From Clostridia bacterium (lineage in GTDB: Bacteria > Bacillota > Clostridia > TANB77 > CAG-508), in contig JAFXOY010000052.1 of assembly GCA_017528375.1 (NCBI GenBank), forward strand, positions 1-60,450: a DNA stretch of 60,450 nt, given 5' to 3'. Positions 5,144 through 57,725 of the stretch are shown here, piece by piece (position 1 is the first letter of the stretch; every line of letters begins with the position of its first letter). The position numbers and the translations under genes are program-made. The notes beneath the pieces were generated by a model that worked only from the letters and a program-made list of their open reading frames with translations, was not told where the DNA came from and made no database searches.

Positions 5144-5213
5144 TGACACATTTTGGGACGGACTCAATTTGTGTCAAAAATGTCCCAAATTGAGTCCGTC
5201 CCCAAATGTGTCA
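5144..5213 (+). repeat. GGGACGGACTCA-core hairpin element, copy 1
   Basis: The 70-bp element has outer arms TGACACA/TGTGTCA and long inner arms around GGGACGGACTCAATTTG and its complement. The left half alone can also pair (TGACACA with TGTGTCA at its own end). It lies in the leader of the Stealth genes and ends 5 nt before the AGGTGGGG ribosome site. Confidence 0.85.
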
Positions 5214-5232
5214 AAAAAAGGTGGGGTGAAAA

Positions 5233-6237
5233 GTGAAAGTTAATAATAATGAAAAAATTGATTTCGTAATTCTTTGGGTTGACGGAAATGATCCAGAGTG
5301 GATAAAAGAGAAAAATGAATTTTCAGGGATAATAGGAGATTCAAAGCAAAATAGATTTAGAGATTGCGATAATATGCAATATCTTTTTAGAGGAATTGAA
5401 AAGTATGCATCATGGGTTAATAAAATTTATTTTATAACATGGGGACATGTTCCAAGTTGGCTTGATACTAATAACGAAAAAATAGTTGTTGTAAAGCATG
5501 AAGAGTTTATTCCAAAAGAGTATTTACCAACTTTTAATTCAAATGTTATAGAACTAAATTTATTCAGAATTGAAAGTTTGTCAGAAAGATTTGTTTTATT
5601 AAATGATGATCTATTTTTCTTAAAACCAACCAAACCGGAAGATTTTTTCAAAAATGGATTACCAACAGATGTGTATGCTGAATATACTCAACTTGCAACT
5701 TCTTACAATGATGTTCATTATATGATGAAGGCTAATATTTTATCAATAATAAATAAACATTTTAGCAAACAAGATTGTGTAAAGAAAAATCTGGCTAAAT
5801 TTTTGAATGTAAAATATGGAGCATTAAATTATAAAACTCTTCATTCAATTAGATTTAAAAAGAAGTTTGTTGGATTTTGGAATTTTCACGCTCCACAGTC
5901 ATATCTTAAAGAGACTTTTAGAGAGATTTGGGATAAAGAGGGAGAAAATCTTGATAATGCATGCAGAAATAAGTTTAGAGCATCAAGCGATTTAGGACAT
6001 TATTTGTGCAGATATTGGCAAATGGTTTCTGGAAATTTTGAACCTAAAAAAGATGAGAGCAAATACATTGTTTTTCTTGATGATAACACAGAAAATATTA
6101 AACATTTAAAAAGTGGAAAATACAAATATGTGTGTATTAATGATGCTTACATGGATATTGATTTTGAAAAAGCTAAAAATGAAATCAATGCTTCACTTCA
6201 AGAATTATTACCAGAAAAATCAGAATTTGAATTATAA
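5233..6237 (+). CDS. Stealth-family sugar-phosphate transferase 1
   Basis: This 334-residue protein carries the four conserved regions of Stealth proteins: IDFVILWVDGNDPEW near residue 9 (CR1), NRFRDCDNMQYLFRGIEKY with WVNKIYFITWGHVPSWL near 40-80 (CR2), FNSNVIELNLFRIESLSERFV with LLNDDLFFL near 97-130 (CR3) and a later FRASSDLGHYLCRYWQ block. Stealth enzymes move a hexose-1-phosphate or similar group onto capsular or wall polysaccharide, forming phosphodiester links. It has no membrane segment, so it acts at the cytoplasmic face. The start is GTG at 5233, 6 nt after AGGTGGGG. A close paralogue follows. Both genes are bracketed by hairpin repeats. Confidence 0.9.
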   Translation: MKVNNNEKIDFVILWVDGNDPEWIKEKNEFSGIIGDSKQNRFRDCDNMQYLFRGIEKYASWVNKIYFITWGHVPSWLDTNNEKIVVVKHEEFIPKEYLPTFNSNVIELNLFRIESLSERFVLLNDDLFFLKPTKPEDFFKNGLPTDVYAEYTQLATSYNDVHYMMKANILSIINKHFSKQDCVKKNLAKFLNVKYGALNYKTLHSIRFKKKFVGFWNFHAPQSYLKETFREIWDKEGENLDNACRNKFRASSDLGHYLCRYWQMVSGNFEPKKDESKYIVFLDDNTENIKHLKSGKYKYVCINDAYMDIDFEKAKNEINASLQELLPEKSEFEL

Positions 6238-6267
6238 AAATCCAACCAAGTGAGTAGGGAATTAAAA

Positions 6268-7262: not shown

Positions 7263-7366
7263 TAGGACAATTTGGGGACGCGTACCAAAATGTCCTTTTT
7301 TCATTGGACATTTTGATACGCGTCCCCAGATTGTCTCGTCCCCAATTGTCTCGTCCCCAATTGTTC
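7263..7366. repeat. GGGGACGCGT-core hairpin element array, copy 2
   Basis: Two hairpin units face each other (GGACAATTTGGGGACGCGTA, then its imperfect inverted copy ending near 7336), followed by two direct repeats of a 15-bp piece, TTGTCTCGTCCCCAA. It fills the gap between two convergent genes. On the minus strand its far end begins TAGAACAATTGGGGACG, whose TAG is the stop of the lipoprotein gene. Confidence 0.85.
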
Positions 7367-7704
7367 TATTTTTTCTCATAAACTACGTCGTTATCAAAAC
7401 TATCTTTAATGATAAGTTTTTTGCCATCAATTTTATATTCATAAGTTCCAGGAACTGTGTTTCCTTTATATAGAATTGTAACTGTACTACCGTCGTCTTC
7501 ATAAGTAAAATTCATTTCACTGCCAAAAGCTTTATAACTTCCTGTTTTGTCTTCATTAAATGTGTATACATATCCTGAATGTTCCCATGAACCAATTAAA
7601 GAATTTTTGTCCTCTTTAGTTGCGTCTTTTCCACATCCAGTTAATAGTAACACACTAACCATTAATATAAGTGCTAAAACTATTGATATAAGCACTTTTT
7701 TCAT
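7366..7704 (-). CDS. Small secreted lipoprotein
   Basis: The 112-residue product has a lipoprotein signal (MKKVLISIVLALILMVSV, then lipobox LLTGCG with Cys at residue 24). The mature part is a small beta-rich domain (LIGSWEHSGYVYTFNEDKTG followed by repeated strands) like the short lipocalin-like or DUF5640-type lipoproteins common in Clostridia. Its function is unknown. A minus-strand AAGGAGGTGG ribosome site precedes the ATG. The gene is flanked on both sides by hairpin elements, and its TAG stop is the first triplet of the downstream element. Confidence 0.8.
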   Translation of the reverse strand: MKKVLISIVLALILMVSVLLLTGCGKDATKEDKNSLIGSWEHSGYVYTFNEDKTGSYKAFGSEMNFTYEDDGSTVTILYKGNTVPGTYEYKIDGKKLIIKDSFDNDVVYEKK

Positions 7705-7779: not shown

Positions 7780-7816
7780 TTGGGACATTTTGGTGCGCGT
7801 CCCCAAAATGTCCCAA
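7780..7816. repeat. GCGCGTCCCC-core hairpin element, copy 3
   Basis: A single unit with arms TTGGGACATTTTGG and CCAAAATGTCCCAA around GTGCGCGTC-type core. It lies between the start of the lipoprotein gene and the end of the FliB-like gene and could terminate transcription of the latter. Confidence 0.85.
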
Positions 7817-8933: not shown

Positions 8934-8990
8934 TTGCACAATTGGGGACGCGTCCTTTGCTAGTGAATTTTGCACAGCCAGGGACACGTC
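8934..8990 (-). repeat. Decayed half copy of the cloverleaf hairpin element, copy 4
   Basis: The sequence from TTGCACAATTGGGGACGCGTCC through TTTTGCACAGCCAGGGACAC matches the left half of the copy at 33131-33248; the rest is lost. It lies in the 5' leader of the FliB-like gene, between promoter and ribosome site. Confidence 0.7.
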
Positions 8991-9019
8991 ATTATATTTA
9001 CGCGAAATAATATTTTCAA
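8991..9019 (-). promoter_or_regulatory. Promoter of the FliB-like gene
   Basis: On the minus strand TTGAAA (9019-9014) and TATAAT (8996-8991) are 17 bp apart, divergent from the 66-residue gene's promoter. Confidence 0.65.
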
Positions 9020-15841: not shown

Positions 15842-15940
15842 TTTGACACATTTGGGGACGGACTCAATTTGGGACAAAAATGTCCCAAATTGAGTCCGTC
15901 CCGGATTGGGTCAAAAGTGACACAAAGAGGGACGGTCTTG
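15842..15940. repeat. GGGACGGACTCA-core hairpin element, copy 5
   Basis: The main element (15842-15916) has a nearly perfect long stem: GGACGGACTCAATTTGGGACA pairs with its complement across an AAAA loop. A decayed extra unit follows (GTGACACAAAGAGGGACGGT, to about 15940). It lies between two divergent promoters. Confidence 0.85.
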
Positions 15941-20117: not shown

Positions 20118-23100
20118 TGGGAGATGAATTAGAATTATTTGACAAAATTAAAATTGGATTAGCATCAGATGAAAAAATAAGAGAATGGTCAAAAGGTGAA
20201 GTTAAAAAACCTGAAACAATCAACTATAGAACTCTAAAACCTGAAAAAGATGGATTGTTCTGTGAAAGAATATTCGGACCAACAAAAGACTGGGAATGTC
20301 ATTGTGGTAAATATAAAAGGGTAAGATATAAAGGAATAGTTTGTGACAGATGTGGTGTTGAAGTTACAAAGGCTAAAGTAAGAAGAGAAAGAATGGGACA
20401 TATTGAACTTGCAGCACCAGTTGCTCACATTTGGTATTTCAAAGGAATACCAAGCAGAATAGCATTAATATTAGATGTTTCACCACGTAACTTAGAAAAA
20501 GTAATTTATTTTGCTTCATACATAGTTACAGATAAAGGTGAAACAGGATTAATGAAATGCCAAGTTTTAAGTGAAAAAGAATATCACGAAGCTGTTGAAA
20601 AATACGGAAAAGGTTCTTTTAAAGCTGAAATGGGTGCAGAAGCTGTTCGTAAACTATTAGAAGAAGTTGATTTAGAAAAATTATCAACAAGCTTAAAGAA
20701 AGAACTTGCAAAAGCAAGTGAACAAAAAAAGGCTAAAATCATTAAAAGATTAGATACAATCGAAGCATTCAGACAATCTGAAAACAGACCTGAGTGGATG
20801 GTAATGAATGTTATTCCTGTAATTCCACCAGAATTAAGACCAATGGTTCAATTAGATGGTGGTAGATTTGCAACATCAGACTTAAACGATTTATATAGAA
20901 GAGTTATAAACAGAAATAACAGATTAAAAAGATTACTAGAATTAGGTGCTCCAGAAATAATTGTAAGAAACGAAAAACGTATGTTACAAGAATCTGTAGA
21001 TGCATTAATTGATAATGGTAGACGTGGAAGACCTGTTACAGGTGCTGGAAACAGAGCATTAAAATCATTATCAGACATGTTAAAAGGAAAACAAGGTAGA
21101 TTCCGTCAAAACTTACTAGGAAAACGTGTTGACTATTCTGGACGTTCAGTTATCGTTGTAGGTCCTGAACTTAAAATTTATCAATGCGGTCTTCCAAAGG
21201 AAATGGCTATTGAATTATTCAAACCATTTGTTATGAGAGAATTAGTAGGAAGAGGAATTGCACATAACATTAAAAATGCAAAAAGAATGGTAGAAAAATT
21301 AAAACCAGAAGTTTGGGATATGTTAGAATATGTAATTAAAGATCACCCAGTAATGTTAAACCGTGCTCCAACATTACATAGACTAGGTATTCAAGCATTC
21401 GAACCAGTTTTAGTTGAAGGTAGAGCAATTAAACTTCACCCATTAGTATGTACAGCATTCAATGCTGACTTTGACGGTGACCAAATGGCTATTCACGTTC
21501 CATTATCACCTGAAGCACAAGCAGAAGCTAGATACTTAATGCTTTCAGTTAACAACTTATTAAAACCACAAGATGGTAAACCAGTTACAGTACCAACACA
21601 AGATATGATTCTTGGTGCATATTATTTAACAATGGAAGTTGACGGAGAACAAGGTGAAGGAAATTACTTTGCATCACCAGAAGAAGCAATTATTGCTTAT
21701 GAAAACAAAGACTTAGGAATGCATGCCAAAATAAAAGTTAAAATTAAAAAGGAAATCAATGGCGAAGAAAAAATCGGAACTGTTGAAACAACAGTTGGTA
21801 GATTAATTTACAACCAAGGAATTCCTCAAGATTTAGGATTTGTAGACAGAAGCAAAAAAGCAAATATATTTGAACCAGAAATTAACTTCGTAGTTACAAA
21901 GAAGAATCTTGGAAAAATTATCGCTAAATCAATTAATGTTCATGGTTTAAGTGATACAGCTGTATTACTTGACTATATCAAAGCAACAGGTTACAAATAC
22001 TCAACAATTGGTGCTATTACTGTATCAGTTAGTGATGTTAAAGTACCAGAAGCTAAGAAAACAATTCTTGAAGAAGCAAATAAACAAGTTGATAACATTC
22101 GTAAACAATATAAACGTGGTTTAATAACAGACGAAGAAAGATATAACGCAGTTATTAAAGTTTGGAGTAAAGCTACAGACGATGTTAAAGACGCAATGAA
22201 AGATAACTTCGAAAAATTAAACCCAGTATTCATGATGTCTGAATCTGGAGCCAGAGGTAACTTAGACCAATTAAAACAAATCGCAGGTATGCGTGGACTT
22301 ATGGCTAGTACAACTGGTAAAGCTGTCGAAGTGCCTATTACATCATGCTTTAGGGAAGGATTAAGTGCTATTGAGTACTTTATCGCTGCCCATGGTGCTC
22401 GTAAAGGACTTTCAGATACAGCCTTAAGAACAGCCGATTCAGGATATTTAACAAGAAGATTGGTTGATGTTGCACAAGATATTATCGTAAGAGAAGAAGA
22501 TTGTGGAACACACGAAGGTATTGAAGTATCTGACATTAAAGATGGAAACCAAGTAGTTGAAAAATTAGAAGAAAGATTAGTTGGTAGATATCCATTAGAA
22601 GATATAGTTGATCCAAAAACAGAAAAATTAATAGTAGATAAAAACACAATGATTACAGATGCAATCGCTGAAAAGATTGTAAAAGCTGGATTTGAAAAAG
22701 TTAAAGTTCGTTCAGTAATTGGATGTAGAACAAAACATGGTGTATGTAGTCACTGTTATGGTATGGGTCTAGCTACTAGAGAAGAATCAAAGATTGGTGA
22801 ATCTATAGGTATTATAGCTGCTCAATCAATTGGTGAACCTGGTACACAGTTAACAATGAGAACTATCCACTCTGGTGGTGTTGCCGGTGTTGCTGATATT
22901 ACTCAAGGTCTTCCAAGGGTTGAAGAGTTATTTGAAGCTAGAAAACCAAAGGGATTAGCTATAGTTGCTGAAATAGCTGGTAAAGTTAAAGTAAAAGAAG
23001 ATAGCAAAAATAGAAAAGAAGTAGTAGTTAAGAGTGGTAAAGAAGCTAAATCTTATGTAATACCATTTGGATCTAAATTAAAAGTTAGAGATGGTGATGA

Positions 23101-23734
23101 GGTTGAAGCTGGAGATCCATTAACAGAAGGATCTATCAATCCTAACGAAATCTTATTAATCAACGGACCTGACGGAGTATTTAGATATCTAGTACAAGAA
23201 GTACAAAAAGTTTATAGAAACCAAGGTGTTGATATCAACGATAAACATATTGAAGTTATTGCAAGACAAATGCTTAAGAAAGTAAGAGTAGAGGATAATG
23301 GAGATACAAACATGTTTGCTGGTTCATTAGTAGACATGCATGACTTCGAAGATGAAAACAACAGAGTAATTGCTGAGGGAAAAACTCCTGCAAAAGGAAA
23401 ACGTGTTCTACTTGGAATTACAAAAGCATCACTTGCTACAGAAAGCTTCTTATCAGCTGCTTCATTCCAAGAAACAACAAGAGTTCTTACTGAAGCTGCT
23501 ATCAAAGGAAAAGTTGATGAATTAATAGGATTAAAAGAAAATGTTATCATCGGTAAATTAATCCCAGCAGGAACAGGTATGGCTCAATACCAAGCTACAC
23601 AAATAAAAACTGTAGCAGATGAAGAATCAGCTGAAACAGAATCAAATGGGGAAGACTCAGGAGATAATGGTGTAGAAGTTGGTTTAGACGAAAATGCTAA
23701 AAATGTTGACGATACAACAGATTACGAAGAATAA
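20117..23734 (+). CDS. rpoC: DNA-directed RNA polymerase beta-prime subunit
   Basis: The 1205-residue subunit carries the polymerase active site. The N-terminal zinc finger is [20 protein letters not shown] (about residue 60). The three magnesium-binding aspartates lie in [10 protein letters not shown] (about 449-455). The second zinc site ([13 protein letters not shown]) and the trigger-loop region ([20 protein letters not shown]) are present. It is translated from an ATG that overlaps the rpoB stop (TAATG), with the GGAGGTGAG ribosome site inside rpoB. A short acidic tail ends the protein. A hairpin element directly after the gene has a T tail and probably ends the transcript. Confidence 0.98.
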
Positions 23735-23740
23735 TAAAAA

Positions 23741-23778
23741 AGGACAATTTGGGGACGTGTACCAAATTGTCTTTTTTT
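23741..23778 (+). repeat. GGGGACGTGT-core hairpin element acting as rpoBC terminator, copy 6
   Basis: A solo unit: GACAATTTGG (23743-23752) pairs perfectly with CCAAATTGTC (23762-23771) around GGACGTGTA, followed by seven T residues. It has the form of an intrinsic terminator and sits 6 nt after the rpoC stop. Confidence 0.85.
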
Positions 23779-23804
23779 GGGGTTGCAAATTCCTAAATTT
23801 ACTA

Positions 23805-23833
23805 TTGCAAAATCTGTCGATTACTGATACAAT
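23805..23833 (+). promoter_or_regulatory. Promoter of the 810-residue surface protein
   Basis: TTGCAA (23805-23810) and TACAAT (23828-23833) are 17 bp apart. Confidence 0.65.
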
Positions 23834-23867
23834 TATAGTTAGGAAAGAATAAAGGGGAGGAATATAA

Positions 23868-26316: not shown

Positions 26317-26360
26317 TGGGGACGCGGACAATTTAGTACGCGTCCCTAAATTGTTCCCGT
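26317..26360. repeat. GGGGACGCG-core hairpin element with interleaved stems, copy 7
   Basis: GGGACGCG (26319-26326) can pair with CGCGTCCC (26339-26346), and ACAATTTAG (26328-26336) can pair with CTAAATTGT (26346-26354). The two stems interleave, so they are mutually exclusive or form a pseudoknot. Confidence 0.8.
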
Positions 26361-30017: not shown

Positions 30018-30136
30018 TTGCACAGCTGGGGACGCGTCCCGACTGTGCAAAATGCACAGTCAGGGACACATCAATATAGCTAACCTGTCCCTAGTTGTGC
30101 AAAATGCACAACGGGGACGCGTCCCCAGCTGTGCAA
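30018..30136. repeat. Three-unit cloverleaf hairpin element, copy 8
   Basis: The 119-bp element contains three successive units, each closed by TTGCACAG/CTGTGCAA-type arms. Unit 1 encloses GGGGACGCGTCCC, unit 2 encloses AGGGACA...TGTCCCT with a larger loop, and unit 3 encloses GGGGACGCGTCCCC. The outermost 20 or so bases at each end also pair, so an outer stem with three internal hairpins is possible. It is the inverted equivalent of the copy at 33131-33248. Confidence 0.88.
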
Positions 30137-33130: not shown

Positions 33131-33248
33131 ATGCACAATTGGGGACGCGTCCCTGCTGTGCATTTTGCACAGCGAGGGACAGGTCATGTTGCTAATGTGT
33201 CCCTGACTGTGCATTTTGCACAGTCGGGACGCGTCCCCAGCTGTGCAA
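33131..33248. repeat. Three-unit cloverleaf hairpin element, copy 9
   Basis: The 118-bp element has the same three-unit structure as the copy at 30018-30136 but in inverted orientation; about the last 70 bases match its reverse complement almost exactly. Arms are TGCACAA/..TGTGCA and GCACAGTC types around GGGGACGCGTCCC. Its last bases, TGCAA, overlap the AAGGAGG ribosome site of tilS. Confidence 0.88.
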
Positions 33249-36938: not shown

Positions 36939-36967
36939 TTGATTTATGTTAAATTTTGTGTTATAAT
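36939..36967 (+). promoter_or_regulatory. Promoter of the 1473-residue surface protein
   Basis: TTGATT (36939-36944) and TATAAT (36962-36967) are 17 bp apart. The leader would be about 135 nt. Confidence 0.6.
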
Positions 36968-37020
36968 TAAGAAGTACTTTATAAAAGTGCGGTATACATA
37001 AGATAAAGCATAAAAGAGGA

Positions 37021-37047
37021 ACATACAAATTTTCATGTATGTTTTTA
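37021..37047 (+). terminator. Leader hairpin before the surface protein gene
   Basis: ACATACA (37021-37027) pairs with TGTATGT (37036-37042) and runs into TTTTAATTTG. As it lies between promoter and gene it may be an attenuator; the stem is short. Confidence 0.35.
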
Positions 37048-37112
37048 ATTTGTTTATAATACAATGTTAAAGATATTACAAAAGTTTATTAAAAATAGGA
37101 GGATGTAAAATA

Positions 37113-40100
37113 ATGTTTAAATTTAAAATGTCTTTATTATTTCAAAACGTTAAGTTTAGAGTTGCAGTAGTAGTTTTAGTGATTGCATCTATTATTGCAG
37201 GTATAGTTTATATACCAAGAAATAAAGCTGGAGGAGTAAATAACAGTACTCAATTAACAAGTAATCAAATTATCTCTGAAGCAGCTAAATTAATCGGTAA
37301 AGGATATAGCTCAAATGGATACGGTGGAGGACACGGTGTTAATTTCAACGTGTGGGATGCTAATCAAAAATATGATGGTACTAAAAATAAATTGTTAAGT
37401 ATTGGTGAATTTTCACAACTTGATTGTACAGGTTTAGTTTATTATACTTTAACAAAATTAGGTGTAAGTACAAGTGGTTTCTTATTCCAAAACCCAGTGC
37501 CAGTTGATCCAAACCATTGGTATTATACAAGTCAATCAGCAAAAGTAACAAAAGGAACAAGTAGTTTAAAATTTTCATACAAAGGTGCTACAAAAAATGT
37601 TCAAGTATTAAAAGCTGGTGAAAAAGTAAGTCAAAGACCATATTATATGTGTGAAAATGGTACTGAAATACCATCAGGAACTGTTGTAATTTCTAATGGT
37701 GCTAGTTTAGGTGCAAATTACCACGATCATGGATGGATTTATATAGGTAACTTAGAAACAACAGATGTTAAAGAAGTTGCTAAAACATTAATCAAAGATT
37801 TTGGTGTTAGTGCTAATTTATTAATTAATGGTGACGTAAATGGAAATTTCACAATTAAGACATATAAAAATACAGCTGGTAAAACAGTTGATGTAATTCA
37901 AAAAACAGATGCTAATTCAACTCACTGGAGAATTGAATGTACAGCAGATAGCACAGGAAATGGTGTATACATTAACAATGGTGATCCACGTGTAGATTAC
38001 CAAAATGAAGGTGCAAACAAATTAGTTGGACCAATTTATGCATTCAAATTTGCTGAACAACCTGTTGTATCAGGAAATTATACTGTAGAATTAGTTAAAG
38101 TTAGAGAAGATGGAACAACAGTAATTACATCTGATGAAGCTACTTTCGACATTAATGGCGAAAGCAAAAATACTGCTAAAGGTGTTTTAAATATAGTTTC
38201 AGGTAAAAAAATAGCTAATGTAAATCAAAATGATACATATACAATTACAGAAACAAAAGCTCCAAATGGATTTGTTGCTTATAATGATACAATTAAATTA
38301 AATGTTGGATTCAAAAAGGTAGGTACAAAATATGTTATTGATAGCTCAAAAACAAGTTGTACAGCACCTGGTTTAACAGGAACAATTTATAAAGTTTCAG
38401 AGGATAATGCAAAAATTACAGTATATGTTCCAAATACTGAAAAACGTAGAAATCCAGAAGGACAATATTCTGTAGAATTAATAAAAGTTAAAGAAGATGG
38501 AAAAACAGTAATTACATCAGATGAAGCAACATTTAGTATTAATAATGAAAGTAAAACTACTTCTAAAGGTGTATTAAATGTAGTTTCTTCAAAGAATATT
38601 ACTGGTGTAGATAGCAAAGATTCTTATACAATTAAAGAAACAAAAGCTCCAAACGGATATCAACAATTTACTGGTTCATTAAATTTAGATGTTGCATTTA
38701 AATTAGATCCAGAAACAAATAGATATTTAATTGATAGTGAAAAGACAAAAGGTACAGGATTTAACGAAAACACAAGATTTGAAGTTTCACCAAATGGAAG
38801 TAAAATTACTGTATATGTTGTTAATACAGAAAATGGTAGCTATAATGTAGAATTATATAAGGTTGATGATAAAGGAAATGTTATCAATACACCTGCTAAA
38901 TTCGAGATAAATGGAAAAGAAGCTACAACTAAAAATGGTAAAATTGAAGTTGCTTCAAATGTTGTTGTAACTGATGATACAATAGTTGGACAATATACAA
39001 TTAAAGAAACACAAGCTCCTGAAAATTATAAATTATTTGATGGAACAATATCATTAGGTGTAAAAATGTCTAAAGTTAATAATAAACTTGTATTAACAAA
39101 TGACGGAATTACATTTAATGTAGATGGACAAAATAAAAATGCTAAATTTGTATTAGAAGGTTCTACAATTAAAATTTATGTACCAAATACACATAAAATA
39201 TTTGACTTAAGCTTACGTAATTATATTACTGAAATTGACGGAGTTAAAGTTGATCCAAGTAGAGAACCAATTATAAATGAAGAGTCTATAAAAATATTAC
39301 AAGAAACAGGAACAGCTGCTTATTTCCATATTAAAGATAGTATTGGTGTAACAGTTGGTTCAGAAGTTGAATTAACAATCAGAGTTTACAATGAAGGTGA
39401 AATATTAGGACACGCTAAGGAAATTACAGATTATTTACCAGAAGGTTTATCTTTCTTAAGAATATCTGATAAGAGTACAAGCGAATATTCAACAACTTCA
39501 GCTGTAGGAAGCAAAGTTGTAGTTCTAAACTATAATGGAAATAAAGATATTAAATCTTTAAGAGATTTCTTCGGAAAATCAGAAGTTAATGTAACTAACG
39601 ATTACTACCAAGAAGTTAAAATAATTTGTAAAGTTGAAAATACAGATGTTCATTATATTACAAGTAGAAGCGAAATTACAAACTACGGTTATACAGAAAA
39701 CGGTGTTTGGAAAGAAGCTAAAGAAGTAGGTAATGTTGATGTAGATTCAGCACAAAATACAATTAAAGATGCATTAGATTTAGATAACTGGTATGAAAAT
39801 GCTAAAGCTATTACAGTTGTTGATAAAAACGGTAAAACTTTAGTTTACTATCCAGGAACTCAAGATGATGATGATTTTGAAACAGTTGAAATTTTATCAG
39901 GAAAATATAACATCGTTATTAAGAAAGTAGATAGCGCAGATGGTAAAACAGTATTAGCTGGTGCATATTTCTCAGTAAACGGAAATGATGAAGTTGGACC
40001 AACAAATGCAAATGGTGAAGTTACTTTAGTTAAAGGTGTTCAAATTAAAAATGATAAACAAGTAGATAATTATACAATTAAAGAAACAAAAGCACCTGCT

Positions 40101-41534
40101 GACTATAACTTATATAATGGTGAAATTAAAGTGAAAGTAGCTACTAAATTCAGTGGTAAAACATTTGTAATTGATAGCGAAAAAACAACAGTTGATGGAA
40201 AAAATGTTACATTCTCAACAAACAAAGAAAACACAACATTAACAATTGTTGTTCCAAATACTAAGAAAGTATTTGACTTATCATTACGTAAATTTATTAC
40301 AGAAGTTAATGGAAAAGAATTAACAACAAGTAGAGAACCAAAAGTTGATGTTTCTAAATTAGCTAAAGGTGAATCTACAACAGCTACATATACTCATCCA
40401 AAGAACCCGGTTGATGTAAATACAACAGATGTTGTTACATATACAATTCGTGTTTACAACGAAGGTGAATTAGATGGTTATGCTGCTGAAATAATGGATG
40501 ATATTCCAGAAGGTTTAGTATTCTTACCAGAAAATGAAGTTAATAAAGAATATAAATGGGTAATGTATAAAGAAGTTGCTAAAAAATCTGATAAATCAGT
40601 AGTATTTGATGGTAAAAACTATGAAGTAACAAACAATGCTAAAGAAGCTAAAATAATTGTTACAAAATATTTAGCATTAGAAAACGGAAATGATAATTTA
40701 ATTAAATCATTTAATGGAAAAGAATTAAATTATAAAGATGTTAAAGCTGCATTTAAAGTTGTTGAACCTACAACATCTGATAGAGTATTAATTAACAATG
40801 CCCAAATTACTGATGATACAGATTCAACAGGTAAATCAGTTACAGATAGAGATTCTACAACGAATAAATGGATTGATGGTGAAGATGATCAAGATTATGA
40901 TGCAGTTAAAGTTAGATATTTTGACTTAGCATTACGTAAATGGGTAACAAAAGCTATTGTTTATGAAAACGGATTAGAAAAAGTTACAGAAACAAATCAC
41001 GGACCATGGGATGATCCAGAACCAGTTGTAAAAGTTGACTTGAAAAATACAAATATTGATAATGTAAAAGTTAAATTTGAATATTCAATTAGAATTTACA
41101 ATCAAGGTGAAATTGCAGGTTATGCTAAAGAAGTTTCAGATTATATTCCAGAAGGATTAAAATTTGAAGCTGTAGATAACCCACAATGGAAAGAAGTTGA
41201 CGGAAAAATAGTAACTAGAGCATTAGAAAATACTTTATTACAACCAGGTGAATATGCAGATGTAACAGTTATATTAACATGGATTAATGGAGCTAATAAT
41301 TTAGGATTAAAAACTAATATTGCAGAAATTAGTGAAGATTACAACGAATGGGGAACACCAGATATAGATTCTACACCAAACAATAAAGTTCCAGGTGAAG
41401 ATGATATTGATGATGCACCAGTAATACTTGCTATTAGAACTGGTGAGCCAATTGTTTACACAGGTGTAGCAGTTGCTGCTCTTGCAATAGTTTCATTAGG
41501 AGCTGTAGTAATTAGAAAAAGAATTCTTAAATAA
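37113..41534 (+). CDS. Giant surface protein: NlpC/P60-like enzyme plus SpaA repeats
   Basis: The 1473-residue protein has an N-terminal membrane/signal helix (about 14-35), an NlpC/P60-type domain (about 48-330) with C105 (LDCTGLVYYTL) and a later His (NYHDHGWIYIG, 204-206), then four SpaA/Cna-B domains marked by E-boxes (ITETKAPNGF, IKETKAPNGY, IKETQAPENY, IKETKAPADY). Three domains beginning FDLSLRNYIT, FDLSLRKFIT and FDLALRKWVT follow the third SpaA, the fourth SpaA and each other. SpaA domains usually lock with an internal Lys-Asn isopeptide bond. The C-terminus has IRTGEP, a helix and RKRILK. It probably combines wall remodelling with a long surface stalk. Confidence 0.85.
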   Translation: MFKFKMSLLFQNVKFRVAVVVLVIASIIAGIVYIPRNKAGGVNNSTQLTSNQIISEAAKLIGKGYSSNGYGGGHGVNFNVWDANQKYDGTKNKLLSIGEFSQLDCTGLVYYTLTKLGVSTSGFLFQNPVPVDPNHWYYTSQSAKVTKGTSSLKFSYKGATKNVQVLKAGEKVSQRPYYMCENGTEIPSGTVVISNGASLGANYHDHGWIYIGNLETTDVKEVAKTLIKDFGVSANLLINGDVNGNFTIKTYKNTAGKTVDVIQKTDANSTHWRIECTADSTGNGVYINNGDPRVDYQNEGANKLVGPIYAFKFAEQPVVSGNYTVELVKVREDGTTVITSDEATFDINGESKNTAKGVLNIVSGKKIANVNQNDTYTITETKAPNGFVAYNDTIKLNVGFKKVGTKYVIDSSKTSCTAPGLTGTIYKVSEDNAKITVYVPNTEKRRNPEGQYSVELIKVKEDGKTVITSDEATFSINNESKTTSKGVLNVVSSKNITGVDSKDSYTIKETKAPNGYQQFTGSLNLDVAFKLDPETNRYLIDSEKTKGTGFNENTRFEVSPNGSKITVYVVNTENGSYNVELYKVDDKGNVINTPAKFEINGKEATTKNGKIEVASNVVVTDDTIVGQYTIKETQAPENYKLFDGTISLGVKMSKVNNKLVLTNDGITFNVDGQNKNAKFVLEGSTIKIYVPNTHKIFDLSLRNYITEIDGVKVDPSREPIINEESIKILQETGTAAYFHIKDSIGVTVGSEVELTIRVYNEGEILGHAKEITDYLPEGLSFLRISDKSTSEYSTTSAVGSKVVVLNYNGNKDIKSLRDFFGKSEVNVTNDYYQEVKIICKVENTDVHYITSRSEITNYGYTENGVWKEAKEVGNVDVDSAQNTIKDALDLDNWYENAKAITVVDKNGKTLVYYPGTQDDDDFETVEILSGKYNIVIKKVDSADGKTVLAGAYFSVNGNDEVGPTNANGEVTLVKGVQIKNDKQVDNYTIKETKAPADYNLYNGEIKVKVATKFSGKTFVIDSEKTTVDGKNVTFSTNKENTTLTIVVPNTKKVFDLSLRKFITEVNGKELTTSREPKVDVSKLAKGESTTATYTHPKNPVDVNTTDVVTYTIRVYNEGELDGYAAEIMDDIPEGLVFLPENEVNKEYKWVMYKEVAKKSDKSVVFDGKNYEVTNNAKEAKIIVTKYLALENGNDNLIKSFNGKELNYKDVKAAFKVVEPTTSDRVLINNAQITDDTDSTGKSVTDRDSTTNKWIDGEDDQDYDAVKVRYFDLALRKWVTKAIVYENGLEKVTETNHGPWDDPEPVVKVDLKNTNIDNVKVKFEYSIRIYNQGEIAGYAKEVSDYIPEGLKFEAVDNPQWKEVDGKIVTRALENTLLQPGEYADVTVILTWINGANNLGLKTNIAEISEDYNEWGTPDIDSTPNNKVPGEDDIDDAPVILAIRTGEPIVYTGVAVAALAIVSLGAVVIRKRILK

Positions 41535-41582
41535 TTATAAGGTTCTATTAAGATATTTTAAATAAACATTTTGTATATAAAG

Positions 41583-41609
41583 CAAGAGGTGAAAACCTCT
41601 TGTTTTTTT
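41583..41609 (+). terminator. Terminator of the giant surface protein gene
   Basis: CAAGAGGT pairs with ACCTCTTG across GAAA, followed by seven T residues. Confidence 0.85.
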
Positions 41610-41673
41610 ATGTTTTTAATGATATGATGTGCGTGAAGTATTAAAAAATACTTTTAGTGTTAGGAGGAAGAAA

Positions 41674-43821
41674 ATGGAAAAAATTATTCAGATTATTGCG
41701 GGTGAGTTAGGAGTTAAGTATGGACAGGTTGAAAACACTGTAAAGTTAATTGACGAGGGAAATACTATTCCATTTATTGCGCGTTATAGAAAAGAAGTTA
41801 CAGGTGGTTTAAGTGATGAACAATTGCGTGATTTAGGGGAACGTTTAAGCTACTTGCGTAATTTGGAGACTAGAAAAGAAGAAGTTAGAAATTCTATTGA
41901 AGAACAAGGTAAACTTACAGATGAAATTATAAAGGCACTGGAAAATGCCAAAATTTTAGCTGAAGTTGAAGATATTTATAGACCATATAAACAAAAGAAA
42001 AGAACAAGAGCTACAATTGCTAAGGAGAAAGGTTTAGAACCTTTAGCTGAAATTATAGTTGCACAAGAGGAGAAAAAAGATATTAACGAAATAGCGAAAG
42101 ATTATATTGATAGTGAAAAGGGTGTTGAAACAGTTGAAGATGCTATAGCTGGAGCCATGGATATAATTGCAGAAAATATTTCAGATAATGCAAAATATAG
42201 AAAAGAGATTAAAAGGTTATGCTATAGAGATGGCTTAATTGTTACAAAAGGTGATGAAGATGTTAAGTCAAGCTATGAAATGTATTACGATTTTAATGAA
42301 AAGGTTTCAAGAATTCCTAGTCATAGAATTTTGGCTATAAATAGAGGAGAAAAAGAAGAATTTTTAAAAGTTAAAATTGAGAAGCCAGAAGAACAAATTA
42401 TAGCATATATGGAAAAAGATATTATCAGAAGCGAGACACAATTCTCACAAATACTAAGAGATACTATTTTGGATAGTTTTAAAAGATTAATTGAACCGTC
42501 AATTGAAAGAGAAATTCGTTCAGATTTAACAGAAAAAGCTGAGGAACAAGCAATAAAAGTATTTGGACAAAATGCTAAACAATTATTATTAGGTGCTCCA
42601 TTAAAGGGGTTAACTGTAATGGGATTTGACCCAGCATACAGAACTGGGTGTAAAATTGCTGTTATTGATGAAACAGGAAAATTGTTAGCAACAACAACTG
42701 TATATCCTACTGAACCGCAAAATGATGTAGAAGGTGCTAAAAAGGAACTTATTAAATTAATAAATAAATTTGATATTAATATGATTGCAATAGGAAATGG
42801 TACAGCTTCTAGAGAATCTGAAACTTTTGTATCAAACATGATTTCAGAGTTAGATAAAGAAATATATTATGCAATTGTAAGTGAAGCTGGTGCTTCTGTT
42901 TATTCAGCATCAAAACTTGCTACAGAAGAGTATCCAGATATAAATGTTTCTTTAAGAGGTGCAATTTCAATTGCAAGAAGACTTCAAGATCCTCTAGCAG
43001 AATTGGTTAAAATTGATCCAAAAGCAATCGGTGTTGGACAATACCAACATGATGTAAACCAAAAAAGACTATCAGAAAGTTTAACAGGTGTTGTTGAAGA
43101 TGCTGTTAATAAAGTTGGTGTTGATGTAAATACTGCAACTCCATCATTATTATCATATGTATCAGGAATTAATAAAACTATTGCTAATAATATAGTAAAA
43201 TATAGAGATGAAAATGGTAAATTAAAAGAGCGTAAAGAATTACTAAAAGTTCCAAAACTTGGAAAAGTAGCGTTCGAACAATGTGCAGGTTTTATTCGTG
43301 TATTTGATGGAAAGAATCCATTGGAAATTACTGCAGTTCACCCTGAAAGTTACGACGTAGCCGAAAAACTTCTAAAGAAAATTGGATATGATAAATCTGA
43401 TTTAGTAGATAAAGACAAATTAAAGGAAATTAAAATCAAGTTAAGTGGAGTAAATGTGGAAAACACTGCTAAAGAACTTGAAATTGGAGAATTAACATTA
43501 AAAGATATTATTGAGGAACTTTCAAAACCAGGTAGAGATCCTAGAGATGAAATGCCTAAACCAATTTTACGTAGTGATGTCCTAAAATTTGAAGATTTAA
43601 AAGAAGGAATGATCTTAACAGGAACAGTTAGAAATGTTATAGATTTCGGAGCATTTGTTGATATAGGTGTAAAACATGATGGATTAGTACACATATCTGA
43701 ATTGAGTGACAAATTTGTTAAAAATCCTTCAGATATTGTGTCAGTAGGTGATGTTGTAAAAGTTAAGGTAATCAAAATTGACCAAGAAAGACAAAAAGTC
43801 GGACTAAGCATGAAAATTTAA
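41674..43821 (+). CDS. tex: Tex-family RNA-binding transcription accessory protein
   Basis: The 715-residue protein is a full Tex/YdcI homologue. Visible parts are the N-terminal helical region, the YqgF-like RNase H fold (GFDPAYRTGCKIAVIDETG, about residue 316), helix-hairpin-helix motifs (LLSYVSGINKTIANNIVKYR and the later KVPKLGKVAFEQ) and a C-terminal S1 domain (about 645-715; GTVRNVIDFGAFVDIG). Tex binds nucleic acid and influences transcription and, in some species, toxin expression. ATG 41674 follows TAGGAGGA; an in-frame GTG at 41629 has no ribosome site. A hairpin element follows 2 nt after the stop. Confidence 0.95.
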   Translation: MEKIIQIIAGELGVKYGQVENTVKLIDEGNTIPFIARYRKEVTGGLSDEQLRDLGERLSYLRNLETRKEEVRNSIEEQGKLTDEIIKALENAKILAEVEDIYRPYKQKKRTRATIAKEKGLEPLAEIIVAQEEKKDINEIAKDYIDSEKGVETVEDAIAGAMDIIAENISDNAKYRKEIKRLCYRDGLIVTKGDEDVKSSYEMYYDFNEKVSRIPSHRILAINRGEKEEFLKVKIEKPEEQIIAYMEKDIIRSETQFSQILRDTILDSFKRLIEPSIEREIRSDLTEKAEEQAIKVFGQNAKQLLLGAPLKGLTVMGFDPAYRTGCKIAVIDETGKLLATTTVYPTEPQNDVEGAKKELIKLINKFDINMIAIGNGTASRESETFVSNMISELDKEIYYAIVSEAGASVYSASKLATEEYPDINVSLRGAISIARRLQDPLAELVKIDPKAIGVGQYQHDVNQKRLSESLTGVVEDAVNKVGVDVNTATPSLLSYVSGINKTIANNIVKYRDENGKLKERKELLKVPKLGKVAFEQCAGFIRVFDGKNPLEITAVHPESYDVAEKLLKKIGYDKSDLVDKDKLKEIKIKLSGVNVENTAKELEIGELTLKDIIEELSKPGRDPRDEMPKPILRSDVLKFEDLKEGMILTGTVRNVIDFGAFVDIGVKHDGLVHISELSDKFVKNPSDIVSVGDVVKVKVIKIDQERQKVGLSMKI

Positions 43822-43823
43822 AG

Positions 43824-43895
43824 TTTGACCCATTTGGGGACGGACTCATTTTGGGTCAAAAATGTCCCAAAATGAGTCCGTCCCCAAATGGGACA
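43824..43895. repeat. GGGGACGGACTCA-core hairpin element, copy 10
   Basis: Two facing units: TTTGACCCA...TGGGTCAAA on the left and TGTCCCA...TGGGACA on the right, each self-complementary but with different arms, around GGGGACGGACTCATTT and its complement. The whole can also fold as one long stem. It fills the gap between the tex stop and the AAAAAGGAGG ribosome site of the next gene. Confidence 0.88.
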
Positions 43896-46930: not shown

Positions 46931-47980
46931 ATGGCAAGATCAAGATTTAAAAAAATATTTTCATTATCATCAAAAGACATAGGTATTGATTTAGGTACTG
47001 CAAATATTTTAGTGACTTTAAAAGGAAAGGGAATTGTTCTTAATGAACCATCAGTAGTAGCTATTGATAAAAAAACAGGAAATATATTGGCAACAGGATA
47101 CGAAGCAAAAGAAATGCTTGGCAGAACTCCTCAAGAAATTAGAGCTGTAAGACCAATGAAAGATGGGGTTATTGCAGATTTTACAGGAACTCAGTTGATG
47201 CTTAAAAATATATTAGCAAAAGTTTGCCAAAGATATAGTATAGGTAAACCAAGAGTTATTGTAGGTGTTCCATCTGGAATAACGGAGGTTGAAGAAAGAG
47301 CAGTAGAAGAATCTGTTTTATATGCAGGAGCTAGAGAAGTTTATTTAATTGAAGAACCGATGGCAGCAGCAATTGGCGCTAATATGGATGTTGCAGAACC
47401 AAGTGGAAATATCATAGTTGATATCGGTGGTGGAACAACAGAAGTAGCTGTTATTTCTTTAGGTGGAATAGTAGTTAGCAATTCTATAAGAGTTGCTGGA
47501 GATGAATTAGATGAAGATATTGTAAATTATGTTAAAAGAGAAATGAATTTAGCAATAGGTGATACAACTGCTGAAGATATTAAAATGGAAATTGGTTGTG
47601 CTATGCCATTAATGACTGAATTATCAAAGGAAGTTAAGGGAAGAGATTTAGCAACAGGATTACCAAGAACCATTTATATTACTTCATCACAAGTTCAAGA
47701 AGCAATGCAAGAATCAATTGCTAAAATAGTTGATATAGTTAAAAATACATTAGAAAAAACACCTCCAGAATTAGCTTCAGACATAATGGAAAAAGGCATT
47801 ATTTTAGCTGGCGGTGGAGCGTTAATTAAAAATTTAGACAAGCTATTAAGTATAGCAACAGGAATGCCTGTTTTAGTTGCAGATAATCCTTTGGATTGTG
47901 TCGCAAGAGGCGCTGGAAAAACATTAGATGAGATTGAAAAATTAAAATCTGTTTTATTAAATTCTAGAAAAAGAAGATAG
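46931..47980 (+). CDS. mreB: Rod-shape protein MreB (actin-like)
   Basis: This 349-residue bacterial actin forms membrane-bound filaments that guide side-wall synthesis. The nucleotide-binding motifs are IGIDLGTANILV (about residues 17-28), VDIGGGTTEVAVI (phosphate 2) and GIILAGGGALIKNL (adenosine motif). The ATG at 46931 begins 1 nt after the radC stop; an AAGGA is 15 nt upstream, so initiation may depend on coupling. An in-frame TTG at 46916 directly abuts that AAGGA and is less likely. The TAG stop is the first triplet of a hairpin unit. Confidence 0.95.
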   Translation: MARSRFKKIFSLSSKDIGIDLGTANILVTLKGKGIVLNEPSVVAIDKKTGNILATGYEAKEMLGRTPQEIRAVRPMKDGVIADFTGTQLMLKNILAKVCQRYSIGKPRVIVGVPSGITEVEERAVEESVLYAGAREVYLIEEPMAAAIGANMDVAEPSGNIIVDIGGGTTEVAVISLGGIVVSNSIRVAGDELDEDIVNYVKREMNLAIGDTTAEDIKMEIGCAMPLMTELSKEVKGRDLATGLPRTIYITSSQVQEAMQESIAKIVDIVKNTLEKTPPELASDIMEKGIILAGGGALIKNLDKLLSIATGMPVLVADNPLDCVARGAGKTLDEIEKLKSVLLNSRKRR

Positions 47981-48010
47981 GACAATTTTGGGACGTGTAC
48001 CAGATTGCCC
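47978..48010. repeat. GGGACGTGT-core hairpin unit, copy 11
   Basis: TAGGACAATTTTGGGACGTG then TACCAGATTGCCC; GGACAATTT pairs imperfectly with AGATTGCCC. It begins in the mreB stop codon and ends 26 nt before the mreC ATG. Confidence 0.7.
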
Positions 48011-55836: not shown

Positions 55837-56751
55837 ATGAATCAAATATTATTAACAAATGAAGAAACTGGTAAAAGTTCTAATGGAATGAAACCAGTTA
55901 TAAGATTTTTTGCAGTGGTAGCAATAGTATTTGCTATTGTTTTAATTGTTGAAGGTATTTTACATCTTTACAATAATTTAAACAAAAGAAATGATTATTC
56001 AAAACCACAGTTAAGCTACGAGAAAAATGGTAGTTCAATTAATTTAAAAGTAGATGGCGAAATTGGACTTAATAAAGTTACATATTCATGGAATGATGGA
56101 AATGAAACAGTTTTATCTGCTGATGGAAGAAAAAGTGTAAGCTACAATATCGAAATTCCACAAGGAGACAGTACATTAAAAGCAGTTGTAAAAGATGTGG
56201 AAGGACACGAAACAAAATTTGAAGATATTGAAATTTCATTTAACGAATCTGATGATACTGTAAAACCTGAAATAAAAATTGAAAATGTTAGTGGTAAATT
56301 AGAAGTTACTGCAACAGATGAAAAAGAAATTGATTATTTAACTTATCAATGGGAAGGGGCAGATGAGGTTAGAATTGAACAATCAGAAGAAGATAAAACA
56401 AAAATTGTACAAACTATAGAAGTTGAAAAAGGAACAAAAAAATTAACTTTAGTTGCTGTTGATAAAACTGGAAATAAACAAACTGTAACAAAGAAAATTA
56501 TTGGATCTAATGGACCAGCAATAAGTGCTTCACTAGATGGGGATAATTTCGTAATTAAAGTTACAGATGAATTCGGAATTACAAAGATTGAGTATACACA
56601 TAATGATGAACAAAAAACAGTAGAAGGAATTCCAGAAAATGCCAAAGAGTTTGAATTTAGAGTGCCACTAAAAGATGGAGTAAACTTACTAAAAATTAAT
56701 GCTTATGAAAACGGAATTATGACAGAATACAAATGCAAAAAGACAAAATAA
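55837..56751 (+). CDS. Single-pass membrane protein with Ig-like repeats
   Basis: The 304-residue protein has a cytoplasmic N-terminus, one helix (about residues 23-46) and an extracellular part of three similar beta-sandwich repeats (about 55-125, 130-220, 225-300), with matching segments such as KVTYSWNDGNETVL, YLTYQWEGADEVRI and KIEYTHNDEQKTVE. Each repeat looks like a bacterial Ig-like domain. The function is unknown; sensing or binding at the surface is plausible. It is the first gene of a probable operon with the receiver-GGDEF protein, 17 nt downstream. The ribosome site is GAGGTG. Confidence 0.75.
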   Translation: MNQILLTNEETGKSSNGMKPVIRFFAVVAIVFAIVLIVEGILHLYNNLNKRNDYSKPQLSYEKNGSSINLKVDGEIGLNKVTYSWNDGNETVLSADGRKSVSYNIEIPQGDSTLKAVVKDVEGHETKFEDIEISFNESDDTVKPEIKIENVSGKLEVTATDEKEIDYLTYQWEGADEVRIEQSEEDKTKIVQTIEVEKGTKKLTLVAVDKTGNKQTVTKKIIGSNGPAISASLDGDNFVIKVTDEFGITKIEYTHNDEQKTVEGIPENAKEFEFRVPLKDGVNLLKINAYENGIMTEYKCKKTK

Positions 56752-56768
56752 AAGTTAGGTGAGTGCAA

Positions 56769-57692
56769 ATGATTCAATATATATACATTATAGATGAAGA
56801 AGAGAGTTTATATAACAAATTAAATGAATTGTTTAGAGAAGAAAAGCTATTATGTTTTAGAAACGTTAATAAAAGTAATATTGATGTTGCTCTAAAAAAT
56901 ATACCAGAACTAATTATCATAAATGAAGATACTTTAAATGGAGATATATTAGATGTCTGCAGAAAAATTAGAGAAAATGATGACAACAAAATTACACCTA
57001 TAATTGTTATTTCATCTAATACAGATCATAATCACAGAGTTGAAATTTTAAAAGCATCTGTTGAACATTTTATAAAAAAACCAATAGATGAGGAATATTT
57101 ATATTATACAATTTTAAACATTATAAAACTTATAGATATTAACAGAACTGTAAGCCCATTGACAGGACTTCCTGGAAATGTACAAATTCAGGCTGAAATG
57201 AAGAAAAGATTAATGAATAAAGAAAAATTTGTAATGTTATATCTTGATTTAGATAATTTTAAAGCATACAATGATGTTTATGGATTTGTTAAAGGTGATG
57301 AAATTATTAAATTTACAGCTAGAACAATAGTAAAAAATGTTCATGAGATAGATAATGAAAATGGTTTTGTTGGGCATATAGGCGGAGATGATTTTGTTGC
57401 AATAATATCAAATGACAAATTTGAAACTTTATGCCAAAACATAATATTAGACTTTGATTACAATGTTCTTGATTATTTTACACAAGAACACATTGAAAAA
57501 GGATATATTGAAATTGAAAACAGAAAAGGAGTAATGGAAGAATTCCCACTAACATCAATTTCAATTGCCGTTGTTGAAGTAAATAATAATTTCCACAATA
57601 TTTTAGAAATAGGGGAAGTAGGAGCACAAATAAAACGCCTTTCTAAAAGTATAACAGGAAGTACATATGTAGTAAATAAAAGAAAAAATTAG
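56769..57692 (+). CDS. Degenerate receiver plus GGDEF-domain protein
   Basis: The 307-residue protein has an N-terminal receiver-like domain (about 1-120) and a GGDEF domain (about 128-307). In the receiver the phospho-acceptor position in PELIIINEDTLNGD is Asn rather than Asp, though the Lys of FIKKP remains. In the GGDEF domain the signature is GGDDF (205-209); the metal Asp pair in LYLDLDNF is kept, and no RxxD inhibitory site is seen. It may still make c-di-GMP or act as a binding or dead domain. ATG 56769 follows AGGTGAG. Its TAG stop begins a hairpin unit. Confidence 0.82.
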   Translation: MIQYIYIIDEEESLYNKLNELFREEKLLCFRNVNKSNIDVALKNIPELIIINEDTLNGDILDVCRKIRENDDNKITPIIVISSNTDHNHRVEILKASVEHFIKKPIDEEYLYYTILNIIKLIDINRTVSPLTGLPGNVQIQAEMKKRLMNKEKFVMLYLDLDNFKAYNDVYGFVKGDEIIKFTARTIVKNVHEIDNENGFVGHIGGDDFVAIISNDKFETLCQNIILDFDYNVLDYFTQEHIEKGYIEIENRKGVMEEFPLTSISIAVVEVNNNFHNILEIGEVGAQIKRLSKSITGSTYVVNKRKN

Positions 57693-57725
57693 GACAATTT
57701 GGGGACGCGTACCTAATTGTCCTAA
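57689..57725. repeat. GGGGACGCGT-core hairpin unit, copy 12
   Basis: TTAGGACAATT pairs with AATTGTCCTAA around TGGGGACGCGTACCT. The TAG (57690-57692) is the stop codon of the GGDEF gene. Confidence 0.85.

What the first reader, a model, noticed from the sequence alone, without database searches (positions are those of the whole stretch)
5144..57725. A dispersed family of about twelve hairpin elements with a GGGGACGCGT/GGGGACGGACTCA core
Seen directly: at 5144, 7263, 7780, 8934, 15842, 23741, 26317, 30018, 33131, 43824, 47978 and 57689 there are intergenic palindromes built from units of the form arm-core-complementary arm. The core is GGGGACGCGT, GGGGACGTGT or GGGGACGGACTCA; arms vary (TTGCACAG, GACAATTTGG, TGACACA, TTTGACCCA, TTGGGACA) but are matched within a unit, which is covariation expected of a selected structure. 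Known: REP/BIME elements moved by Y1 (REP-associated) transposases look like this. Inference: this is a REP/MITE family with several arm subtypes and a transposase elsewhere in the genome, or a structural RNA family. Twelve copies in 60 kb is a high density.
Basis: partly seen in the sequence, partly recalled or inferred. Interest (0 to 1): 0.8.

Follow-up and report, generated by a model that had tools for sequence, protein, structure and literature searches.

The report
Hairpin DNA parasites with matching transposases
The dozen hairpins are copies of three families of tiny, gene-less mobile DNA elements in an uncultured gut Clostridia genome; two of the families each match the ends of a transposase gene elsewhere in the same genome, and they look like a differently tagged version of the REP hairpin systems known from other bacteria.

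Summary
In detail: all 12 positions carry dispersed palindromes (cores 73 + 90 times genome-wide, reversed-motif control 0). They form three families, not one. A (GGGGACGGACTCA) and B (GGGGACGCGTCC) match, at 77-98% in the pieces printed, the inverted ends of two different Y1 (REP-associated, RAYT) transposase genes in the same genome; full-length B copies are the two ends of its RAYT element without the gene (116-118 bp). C (GGGGACGYGTACC) has no transposase found. At seven window sites compared with genus relatives (five on both flanks, two on one), none shows the same family; some hold another GGGGAC-type element. B abounds only in the two genus genomes with the B-type RAYT. The 'matched arms' claim fails inside family A (27 of 91 units) but holds across RAYT loci of other Clostridia (108 of 230 sites, 12.5 expected). 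Closest known: RAYT/REPIN systems and Di Nocera's TIRYT/TIRtrons; here the tag is GGGGAC, not GTAG, lies in the hairpin loop, and some ends carry a second tag so that two mutually exclusive hairpins can form. New variant of a known kind; mobility is inferred from comparison, not observed.

The parts
5144..5213 (.). Family A inverted dimer (units 5144-5176 + and 5181-5213 -)
   Evidence: model R2 matches; 88.6% identical over 70 bases to the right end of the A-type RAYT element
7264..7337 (.). Family C inverted dimer (units 7264-7294 + and 7307-7337 -)
   Evidence: model R3 matches; in G009 no GGGAC in the 260 bases after the aligned left flank
7338..7367 (-). two extra tandem half-units TCTCGTCCCCAATTG beside the family C dimer
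   Evidence: sequence
7784..7814 (-). Family C single unit
   Evidence: model R3
8935..8991 (+). Family B half element (one end)
   Evidence: model R1; 85% identical over 54 bases to the left end of the B-type RAYT element
15844..15936 (+). Family A dimer plus inner-tag tail GGGACGGTCTT, same layout as the right end of the A-type RAYT element
   Evidence: model R2; 77% identical over 96 bases to that end; a different GGGGACG hairpin lies in the orthologous G009 intergene
23741..23771 (+). Family C single unit, 6 bases after a stop codon
   Evidence: model R3
26319..26357 (-). Family C unit (26327-26357 -) with a partial partner
   Evidence: model R3
30019..30135 (.). Family B full element, 117 bp: both RAYT-element ends joined by 9 bases; 1 base after a stop codon, 19 bases before the next ORF
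   Evidence: model R1; z = -16.3 as ssDNA; no B element at the orthologous site in 15 of 15 other genomes of the genus
33132..33247 (.). Family B full element, 116 bp
   Evidence: model R1; 96% identical over 52 bases to the left RAYT-element end; absent in G009
43826..43895 (.). Family A inverted dimer (43826-43858 + and 43863-43895 -), 4 bases after a stop codon
   Evidence: model R2; z = -14.0; absent in G009
47979..48009 (+). Family C degenerate unit overlapping a stop codon
   Evidence: model R3, E 5e-4; absent in G009
57691..57721 (+). Family C single unit overlapping the stop codon of the preceding ORF
   Evidence: model R3

Best explanation
The elements are non-autonomous REP/REPIN-like mobile DNA. 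Families A and B are derived from, and most likely moved by, two resident RAYT transposases (HUH-Y1 single-strand nucleases related to IS200/IS605 TnpA, with an extra C-terminal part). Each RAYT gene sits between inverted ends; the dispersed copies are one end alone, inverted dimers, or both ends without the gene. The end carries arm - GGGGACG tag - core - arm', and in some ends a second arm and a second tag (GGGAC). Inferred mechanism: when the strand is single (for instance the lagging-strand template), the end folds into a hairpin, the RAYT reads the GGGGAC tag and the arm pairing as E. coli TnpA-REP reads GTAG plus its hairpin, cuts with its tyrosine, and joins the piece into single-stranded intergenic DNA. 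Where arm' can pair with the arm on either side, two mutually exclusive hairpins are possible (tag inside the loop, or tag at the foot), which could set strand or order of cutting. Shown here: the family structure, the matching RAYT ends, absence of the same family at compared sites, covariation of arms across loci. Inferred: cutting, joining, the switch, and that the RAYTs are active today. Family C is best read as an orphaned population whose RAYT was lost or is not in the assembly.
Against: No movement was observed. Family C has no cognate RAYT (two Y1 genes found in a 92% complete genome). G011 has 70 A-model matches but no RAYT detected (76% complete), and G014, G015 and G001 have a few B units without a B-type RAYT found, so abundance and RAYT presence are not perfectly linked. 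Each of G000 and G009 also holds copies of the other's REP type (D copies in G000; an A-like copy in G009), so the switch of type is not clean. GTAG-contacting residues of E. coli TnpA-REP are not conserved, so transfer of its mechanism is uncertain. About half of the double-tag ends do not form each hairpin at 6 pairs, and the A-type ends of this very genome are among them (2-3 pairs). Published manual searches found no REP-like sequences beside TnpAY1 subclass 2.1 (PMC6006769, sections 12 and 20 read). Five of 12 window sites could not be compared, and two were compared on one flank only.
Confidence: 0.87

Rival explanations
1. They are cis-acting RNA structures: transcription terminators, attenuators or mRNA 3'-end stabilisers kept by host selection.
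For: Of 70 clusters between co-directional genes, 42 lie within 30 bases after the upstream stop codon, 23.9 expected for uniform placement, and the folded elements are very stable (folded as DNA).
Against: Compared positions are not conserved. None of 19 terminator-like sites in window 22001-42000 falls on the four elements there. No Rfam match in the window. Inverted ends around RAYT genes are not explained. A side effect on mRNA is not excluded.
Confidence: 0.06
2. The elements are fossils: REP copies now inert, with RAYTs domesticated for some host task and no longer moving them.
For: RAYT orthologs keep their place in two species, as described for domesticated RAYTs (PMC8049555, PMC2817692, passages seen); family C and the A-model set of G011 lack a detected RAYT.
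Against: A units are much alike (94% mean column identity over 73 units, 28 distinct), though they were chosen by an exact 13-base core; no compared site is shared with relatives whose flanks at 30018 keep about 75-84% identity, so spread is recent on the genus scale.
Confidence: 0.2
3. They are products of another mobile system, for instance MITEs of a DDE transposase.
For: Inverted ends and small size also suit DDE MITEs.
Against: The ends match those of Y1 genes. Flank composition outside A and B ends shows no strong consensus. Target-site duplications were not tested, and other transposase families of the genome were not searched.
Confidence: 0.03

Closest known systems
RAYT / REP / REPIN systems (Nunvar 2010 PMC2817692; Bertels and Rainey 2011 PMC3116915; passages seen)
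   Same: Y1 transposase gene flanked by copies of an abundant extragenic palindrome; inverted doublets; each RAYT with its own family; RAYT orthologs stay in place while REP sequence changes
   Different: tag is GGG(G)AC(G/A) instead of GTAG/GTGG and sits in the loop between the arms (or at the foot of an inner hairpin); residues that contact GTAG in E. coli TnpA-REP are not conserved; host is an AT-rich Clostridia genus
TIRYT genes and TIRtrons, probably TnpAY1 subclass 2.1 / RAYT group 1 (Di Nocera 2013 PMC3733652, opening parts and section 16 read; PMC6006769, sections 12 and 20 and passages read)
   Same: Y1 protein, C-terminal HTH in the A-type; terminal inverted repeats with a GGGG motif (GGGGWSAS); moderately abundant dispersed TIR families in some genomes
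   Different: most tags here read GGGGACG, one base off GGGGWSAS; many ends form hairpins with covarying arms, whereas PMC6006769 reports no REP-like sequence beside subclass 2.1; several coexisting families with tens of copies each
CGTC-tagged REPs (PMC3733652)
   Same: reverse complement of the tag contains CGTC; head-to-head dimers
   Different: CGTC-REPs have an unpaired terminal tag, short loops and no associated transposase; here the tag is in a loop and RAYT ends match
IS200/IS605 elements (IS608, ISDra2)
   Same: HUH-Y1 catalytic fold; hairpins at the ends
   Different: inverted rather than asymmetric ends (asymmetry recalled); one gene copy of each type; extra C-terminal part

Membership tests
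REP/REPIN with RAYT | abundant short extragenic palindromes | tested here: met
   A 104, B 80, C 27 unit matches in G000; window elements intergenic, 9 of 12 by count and 3 by judgement
REP/REPIN with RAYT | cognate Y1 transposase gene flanked by copies of the same repeat | tested here: met
   A and B yes; for C none found
REP/REPIN with RAYT | GTAG/GTGG tetranucleotide at the 5' foot of the hairpin | tested here: not met
   the constant tag is GGGGAC
REP/REPIN with RAYT | inverted doublets as replicative unit | tested here: inconclusive
   26 of 57 pure A clusters are head-to-head dimers and 11 of 39 pure B clusters full elements, the rest single or half elements (127 clusters in all, 7 mixed set aside)
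REP/REPIN with RAYT | RAYT kept at the same locus in relatives | tested here: met
   A and B loci shared by G000 and G009; at the A locus six other genomes gave no RAYT by tblastn
REP/REPIN with RAYT | RAYT cuts and joins single-stranded repeat DNA | not testable with these tools
   needs protein and oligonucleotides
TIRYT / TnpAY1 subclass 2.1 | Y1 protein with HUH and Y---NP | tested here: met
   H63, H65, Y123, N127, P128 invariant in 15; Pfam Y1_Tnp over cut-off in 4 of 4
TIRYT / TnpAY1 subclass 2.1 | C-terminal HTH (HTH_23, HTH_28 or Bac_DnaA_C) | tested here: inconclusive
TIRYT / TnpAY1 subclass 2.1 | terminal inverted repeats with GGGGWSAS | tested here: inconclusive
   inverted repeats of 12 or more with GGGAC in 45 of 69 loci, but the common tag GGGGACG departs from the consensus at its seventh base; GGGGACAC of G003 fits
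TIRYT / TnpAY1 subclass 2.1 | placement in subclass 2.1 by phylogeny | not tested
   reference sequences were not held
CGTC-REP | CGTC tag unpaired at one end, no transposase | tested here: not met
   tag within loop, RAYT ends match
Known structural RNA | match to an Rfam family | tested here: not met
   0 matches at gathering threshold in the window

The most novel reading that the evidence does not exclude
GGGGAC-tagged RAYTs are a large, so far undescribed branch of REP systems in Clostridia whose ends are built as arm-tag-arm'-arm-tag, a single-stranded DNA switch with two mutually exclusive hairpins; RAYT and arms coevolve in place (type D and type A at the same locus in two species), and several such families live side by side in one genome, each turning over at its own intergenic sites.
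Probability: 0.25. Interest if true: 0.75.

Novelty: new variant of a known kind. Interest (0 to 1): 0.55.

Why it matters
In the papers seen here REP/REPIN biology rests on GTAG-tagged systems, mostly of Proteobacteria; the TIRYT-like subclass 2.1 was reported to lack REP-like sequences (PMC6006769). Here RAYTs of that general kind in Clostridia come with abundant, fast-changing hairpin families, in many genomes and with natural tag and arm variants, which makes the question of how a domesticated transposase chooses its hairpin directly testable. The elements also sit between operon genes right after stop codons and may shape transcripts of gut bacteria.

Tried and rejected
Within-unit arm covariation as proof of structure: rejected for family A (27 of 91 exact) and for B's outer helix. 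Rfam and tRNA scans of the window: nothing. Terminator reading: no overlap on 20 kb. Target-site motif: no strong consensus in 12 bases outside A or B ends. Relic of the A-type RAYT in G011: no tblastn match; the interval holds other sequence and one degenerate end TTGAAACATCTGGGGACG. Cognate RAYT for family C: none in the own genome; C matches at E up to 1e-4 in 2 of 145 family genomes, 25 in G000 and 1 in G003, and at 1e-3 also 1 in G013 and 2 in G001. A DnaA link (DnaA-like C-terminal domain reading DnaA-box-like arms) was considered and not kept: the fold match is in the A-type, the box consensus in B ends (47 of 49; A units 0 of 73), and the B-type list shows no DnaA match, which is no proof of absence. 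A short-motif count (GGGGACGK) in 20 genomes with related RAYTs is at least threefold over the reversed motif in 7 of 20 (G026-G029, G031-G033), not in the other 13 (ratios); the motif is too short for GC-richer genomes. Literature: in the listings seen (20 of 454 shown; 8 of 59 shown) I found no paper on GGGGAC-tagged REPs or REPINs of Clostridia; Bertels 2017 is not held, so its group 1 is known to me only through PMC6006769.

Dropped before counts: locus L023 (tags inside its frame); 11 of 80 loci with short flanks from the tallies, 12 of 80; of 69 core matches 19 out of register and one more (L077) from alignment A1. Searches count both sides of a locus and probably two loci twice (L014/L176 and L021/L166 share contig lengths), so sites are not independent.
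Full report
What was checked. The window is 60.45 kb, 29.5% G+C, one contig (C124) of a 187-contig, 1.99 Mb draft genome G000 (92% complete, 8% contaminated). The genus has 16 genomes here. Contigs of two of them have the same lengths as records titled Lachnospiraceae bacterium Phil5 and Clostridia bacterium RGIG9027 (L014 and L021 against L176 and L166), so the host is an uncultured Clostridia member; this is an inference from contig length.

The repeats are real. The three cores occur in the window as described. Genome-wide GGGGACGGACTCA has 73 and GGGGACGYGT 90 occurrences, the reversed patterns none, on 23 of 187 contigs. I fetched 80 stretches round those hits and found 127 clusters of GGGACG in them and the window. 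Sorted by core with simple patterns: 57 pure A, 39 pure B, 20 pure C, 3 D, 1 E and 7 mixed.

Three families in the window. A: TGACACA-type arms, core GGGGACGGACTCA, inner tail GGGACGGTCTT. B: arms TGCACA(G/A), GGGGACGCGTCCC, inner hairpin GCTGTGCATTTTGCACAGC, inner tag AGGGAC. C: GGACAATTTGGGGACGYGTACCAAATTGTCC. Models R1 (B), R2 (A), R3 (C) were built from own-genome units, which therefore match by construction. Own-genome matches at E up to 0.001: B 80, A 104, C 27. All 12 reader positions are matched. Copies of two more types occur in the genome: D (TGAAACA arms, GGGGACGGTCTT) and E (GGGACGGAGAAAATTT).

Covariation, for and against. In family A exact arm complement holds in 27 of 91 units; over 28 distinct units the covariation score is reached by 1 of 500 shuffles, but the sequences are related. 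In B the outer arm helix shows nothing (460 of 500), whereas the inner hairpin does (0 of 500; 9 cells changed on both sides), though one slid control (+3) scores as high on the covariation score. C is weak (15 of 500).

Genus-wide pattern. Ten of 16 genomes have Y1_Tnp genes, 16 in all. B units: G000 80, G009 105, G015 14, G014 8, G001 6, the other 11 none; a B-type RAYT was seen in G000 and G009 only, at the same locus, and these two pair with support 1.0 in a tree. A-model units: G000 104, G011 70, G009 24, G003 8, G005 6, G001 3, the other 10 none. The one G011 copy that I read is of type D. The G009 RAYT at the A locus is flanked by type D ends: same locus, 67% identical proteins, different REP type in two species. 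The types are not cleanly sorted: G000 holds D copies, and the best A-model match of G009 is an A-like copy with GGGGACAGACTCA, while D cores are in 4 of the 17 G009 loci held (two of them the RAYT locus) and exact A cores in none. At the A locus the interval in G001, G003, G014 and G015 is 83 to 209 bases with no RAYT; G011 (about 1.0 kb) and G013 (about 1.6 kb) also give no RAYT by tblastn. C: 27 in G000, and 1, 1 and 2 weak matches in G003, G013 and G001; at E 1e-4 in 145 family genomes, 25 in G000 and 1 in G003.

Site turnover. The 30018 site is alignable on both flanks in 15 of 15 other genomes; none has B, and G006 has a GGGGACG element there with the arm type that flanks its own RAYT. 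G013 has two GGACGCGTT stretches at that place; no GGGAC is in them, and a decayed relative cannot be excluded. In G009 the elements at 33131, 43826 and 47979 are absent, both flanks aligned. At 7263 G009 shows none in the 260 bases after the aligned left flank. At 15844 G009, both flanks aligned, has a different GGGGACGGTCC hairpin; on one flank only, G015 shows a B-like degenerate copy, G011 and G001 other GGGGAC-type or similar stretches, and G014, G003 and G013 none. At 8935, left flank only, G003 has a GGGACACTGACAAAAAGTTTC element, the type that flanks the G003 RAYT; G001, G011, G013 and G015 show none, and G009 a doubtful GGGACC stretch. So 0 of 7 comparable sites shows the same family in a relative, with five sites compared on both flanks and two on one; the other 5 (5144, 7784, 23741, 26317, 57691) could not be judged.

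Beyond the genus. A scan of genome contigs with the RAYT alignment kept 80 of 513 relatives (a capped list), mostly Clostridia MAGs, with Syntrophomonas wolfei, Thermoanaerobacter wiegelii, an Atribacteria and an Endomicrobia record among them. Of 69 with both flanks, 47 have GGGGAC upstream, 36 GTCCCC downstream, 31 both; wrong orientation 7, 8 and 6; distant windows 2, 2 and 0 of 52. Over 95 loci (80 plus 15 of the genus) 108 of 230 GGG(G)AC sites are enclosed by complementary arms of 6 or more, re-paired mean 12.5, maximum 24 of 300, with 75 distinct arms listed. So the arms vary and stay complementary while the tag stays: this is the covariation that supports a selected hairpin. In 83 loci 46 of 166 ends have two same-strand tags 25-60 bases apart; of 40 ends with spacing 29-39, hairpin 1 (tag in loop) has 6 or more pairs in 20, hairpin 2 (arm'-loop-arm before the second tag) in 19, both in 14, against about 2 for each after re-pairing. 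The A-type ends of G000 score low in both.

Gene context. Of 127 clusters 25 overlap a mechanical frame by more than 25 bases and 9 lack a called neighbour; of the other 93, 70 lie between co-directional genes. Of these 70, 42 lie within 30 bases after the upstream stop, 23.9 expected under uniform placement, maximum 36 in 5000 draws.

Interpretation. Known (passages or sections seen): E. coli and other TnpA-REP recognise single-stranded REP hairpins and a GTAG tag and cut at a nearby dinucleotide, in one case chosen with the help of the tag (PMC8266576); RAYTs are single-copy and vertically inherited, REPINs are their non-autonomous doublets (PMC8049555, PMC3116915); RAYT orthologs keep place while REPs change and keep pairing (PMC2817692); TIRYTs have TIRs, some with GGGGWSAS (PMC3733652). 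Shown here: the present elements have the same relations with a GGGGAC tag. Inferred: movement by the cognate RAYT through a single-stranded step. Not shown: activity today, cutting position, role of the second tag.

Verdict. A new variant of a known kind: REP/REPIN-like elements of GGGGAC-tagged, TIRYT-like RAYTs in Clostridia, three families in this window, two with their likely transposase identified.

Noticed in passing
L044, L066, L091, L096 (own genome): Four longer family A elements share a conserved inner stretch around CTCTAAATACTAAGA, perhaps a separate MITE subfamily.
   Followed up: no
window 8968, 30044, 30096, 33163, 33214 and alignment A1: 47 of 49 family B ends contain the DnaA-box consensus TTWTNCACA (consensus quoted in PMC6006769); 0 of 73 A units do. 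It may only reflect the palindrome.
   Followed up: partly
L031:106, L059:3178, L089:2000 and 3413; L070:327, L038: Copies of two further families (D and E) whose types flank RAYTs of G009 (L022, L024), not of G000.
   Followed up: partly
G009:C13:10233-10297 (L135): G009 has a B palindrome in the stretch that matches window about 28.4-29.0 kb, where one search lists no GGGGAC in G000.
   Followed up: no
L023 (G007:C98): A RAYT frame that overlaps four GGGGAC tags about 16 bases apart near its start and two more near its end.
   Followed up: no
G011, L154, L247: 70 A-model matches, type D where read, in a genome with no RAYT detected (76% complete) and a degenerate end at the A locus: a possible orphan population.
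   Followed up: partly
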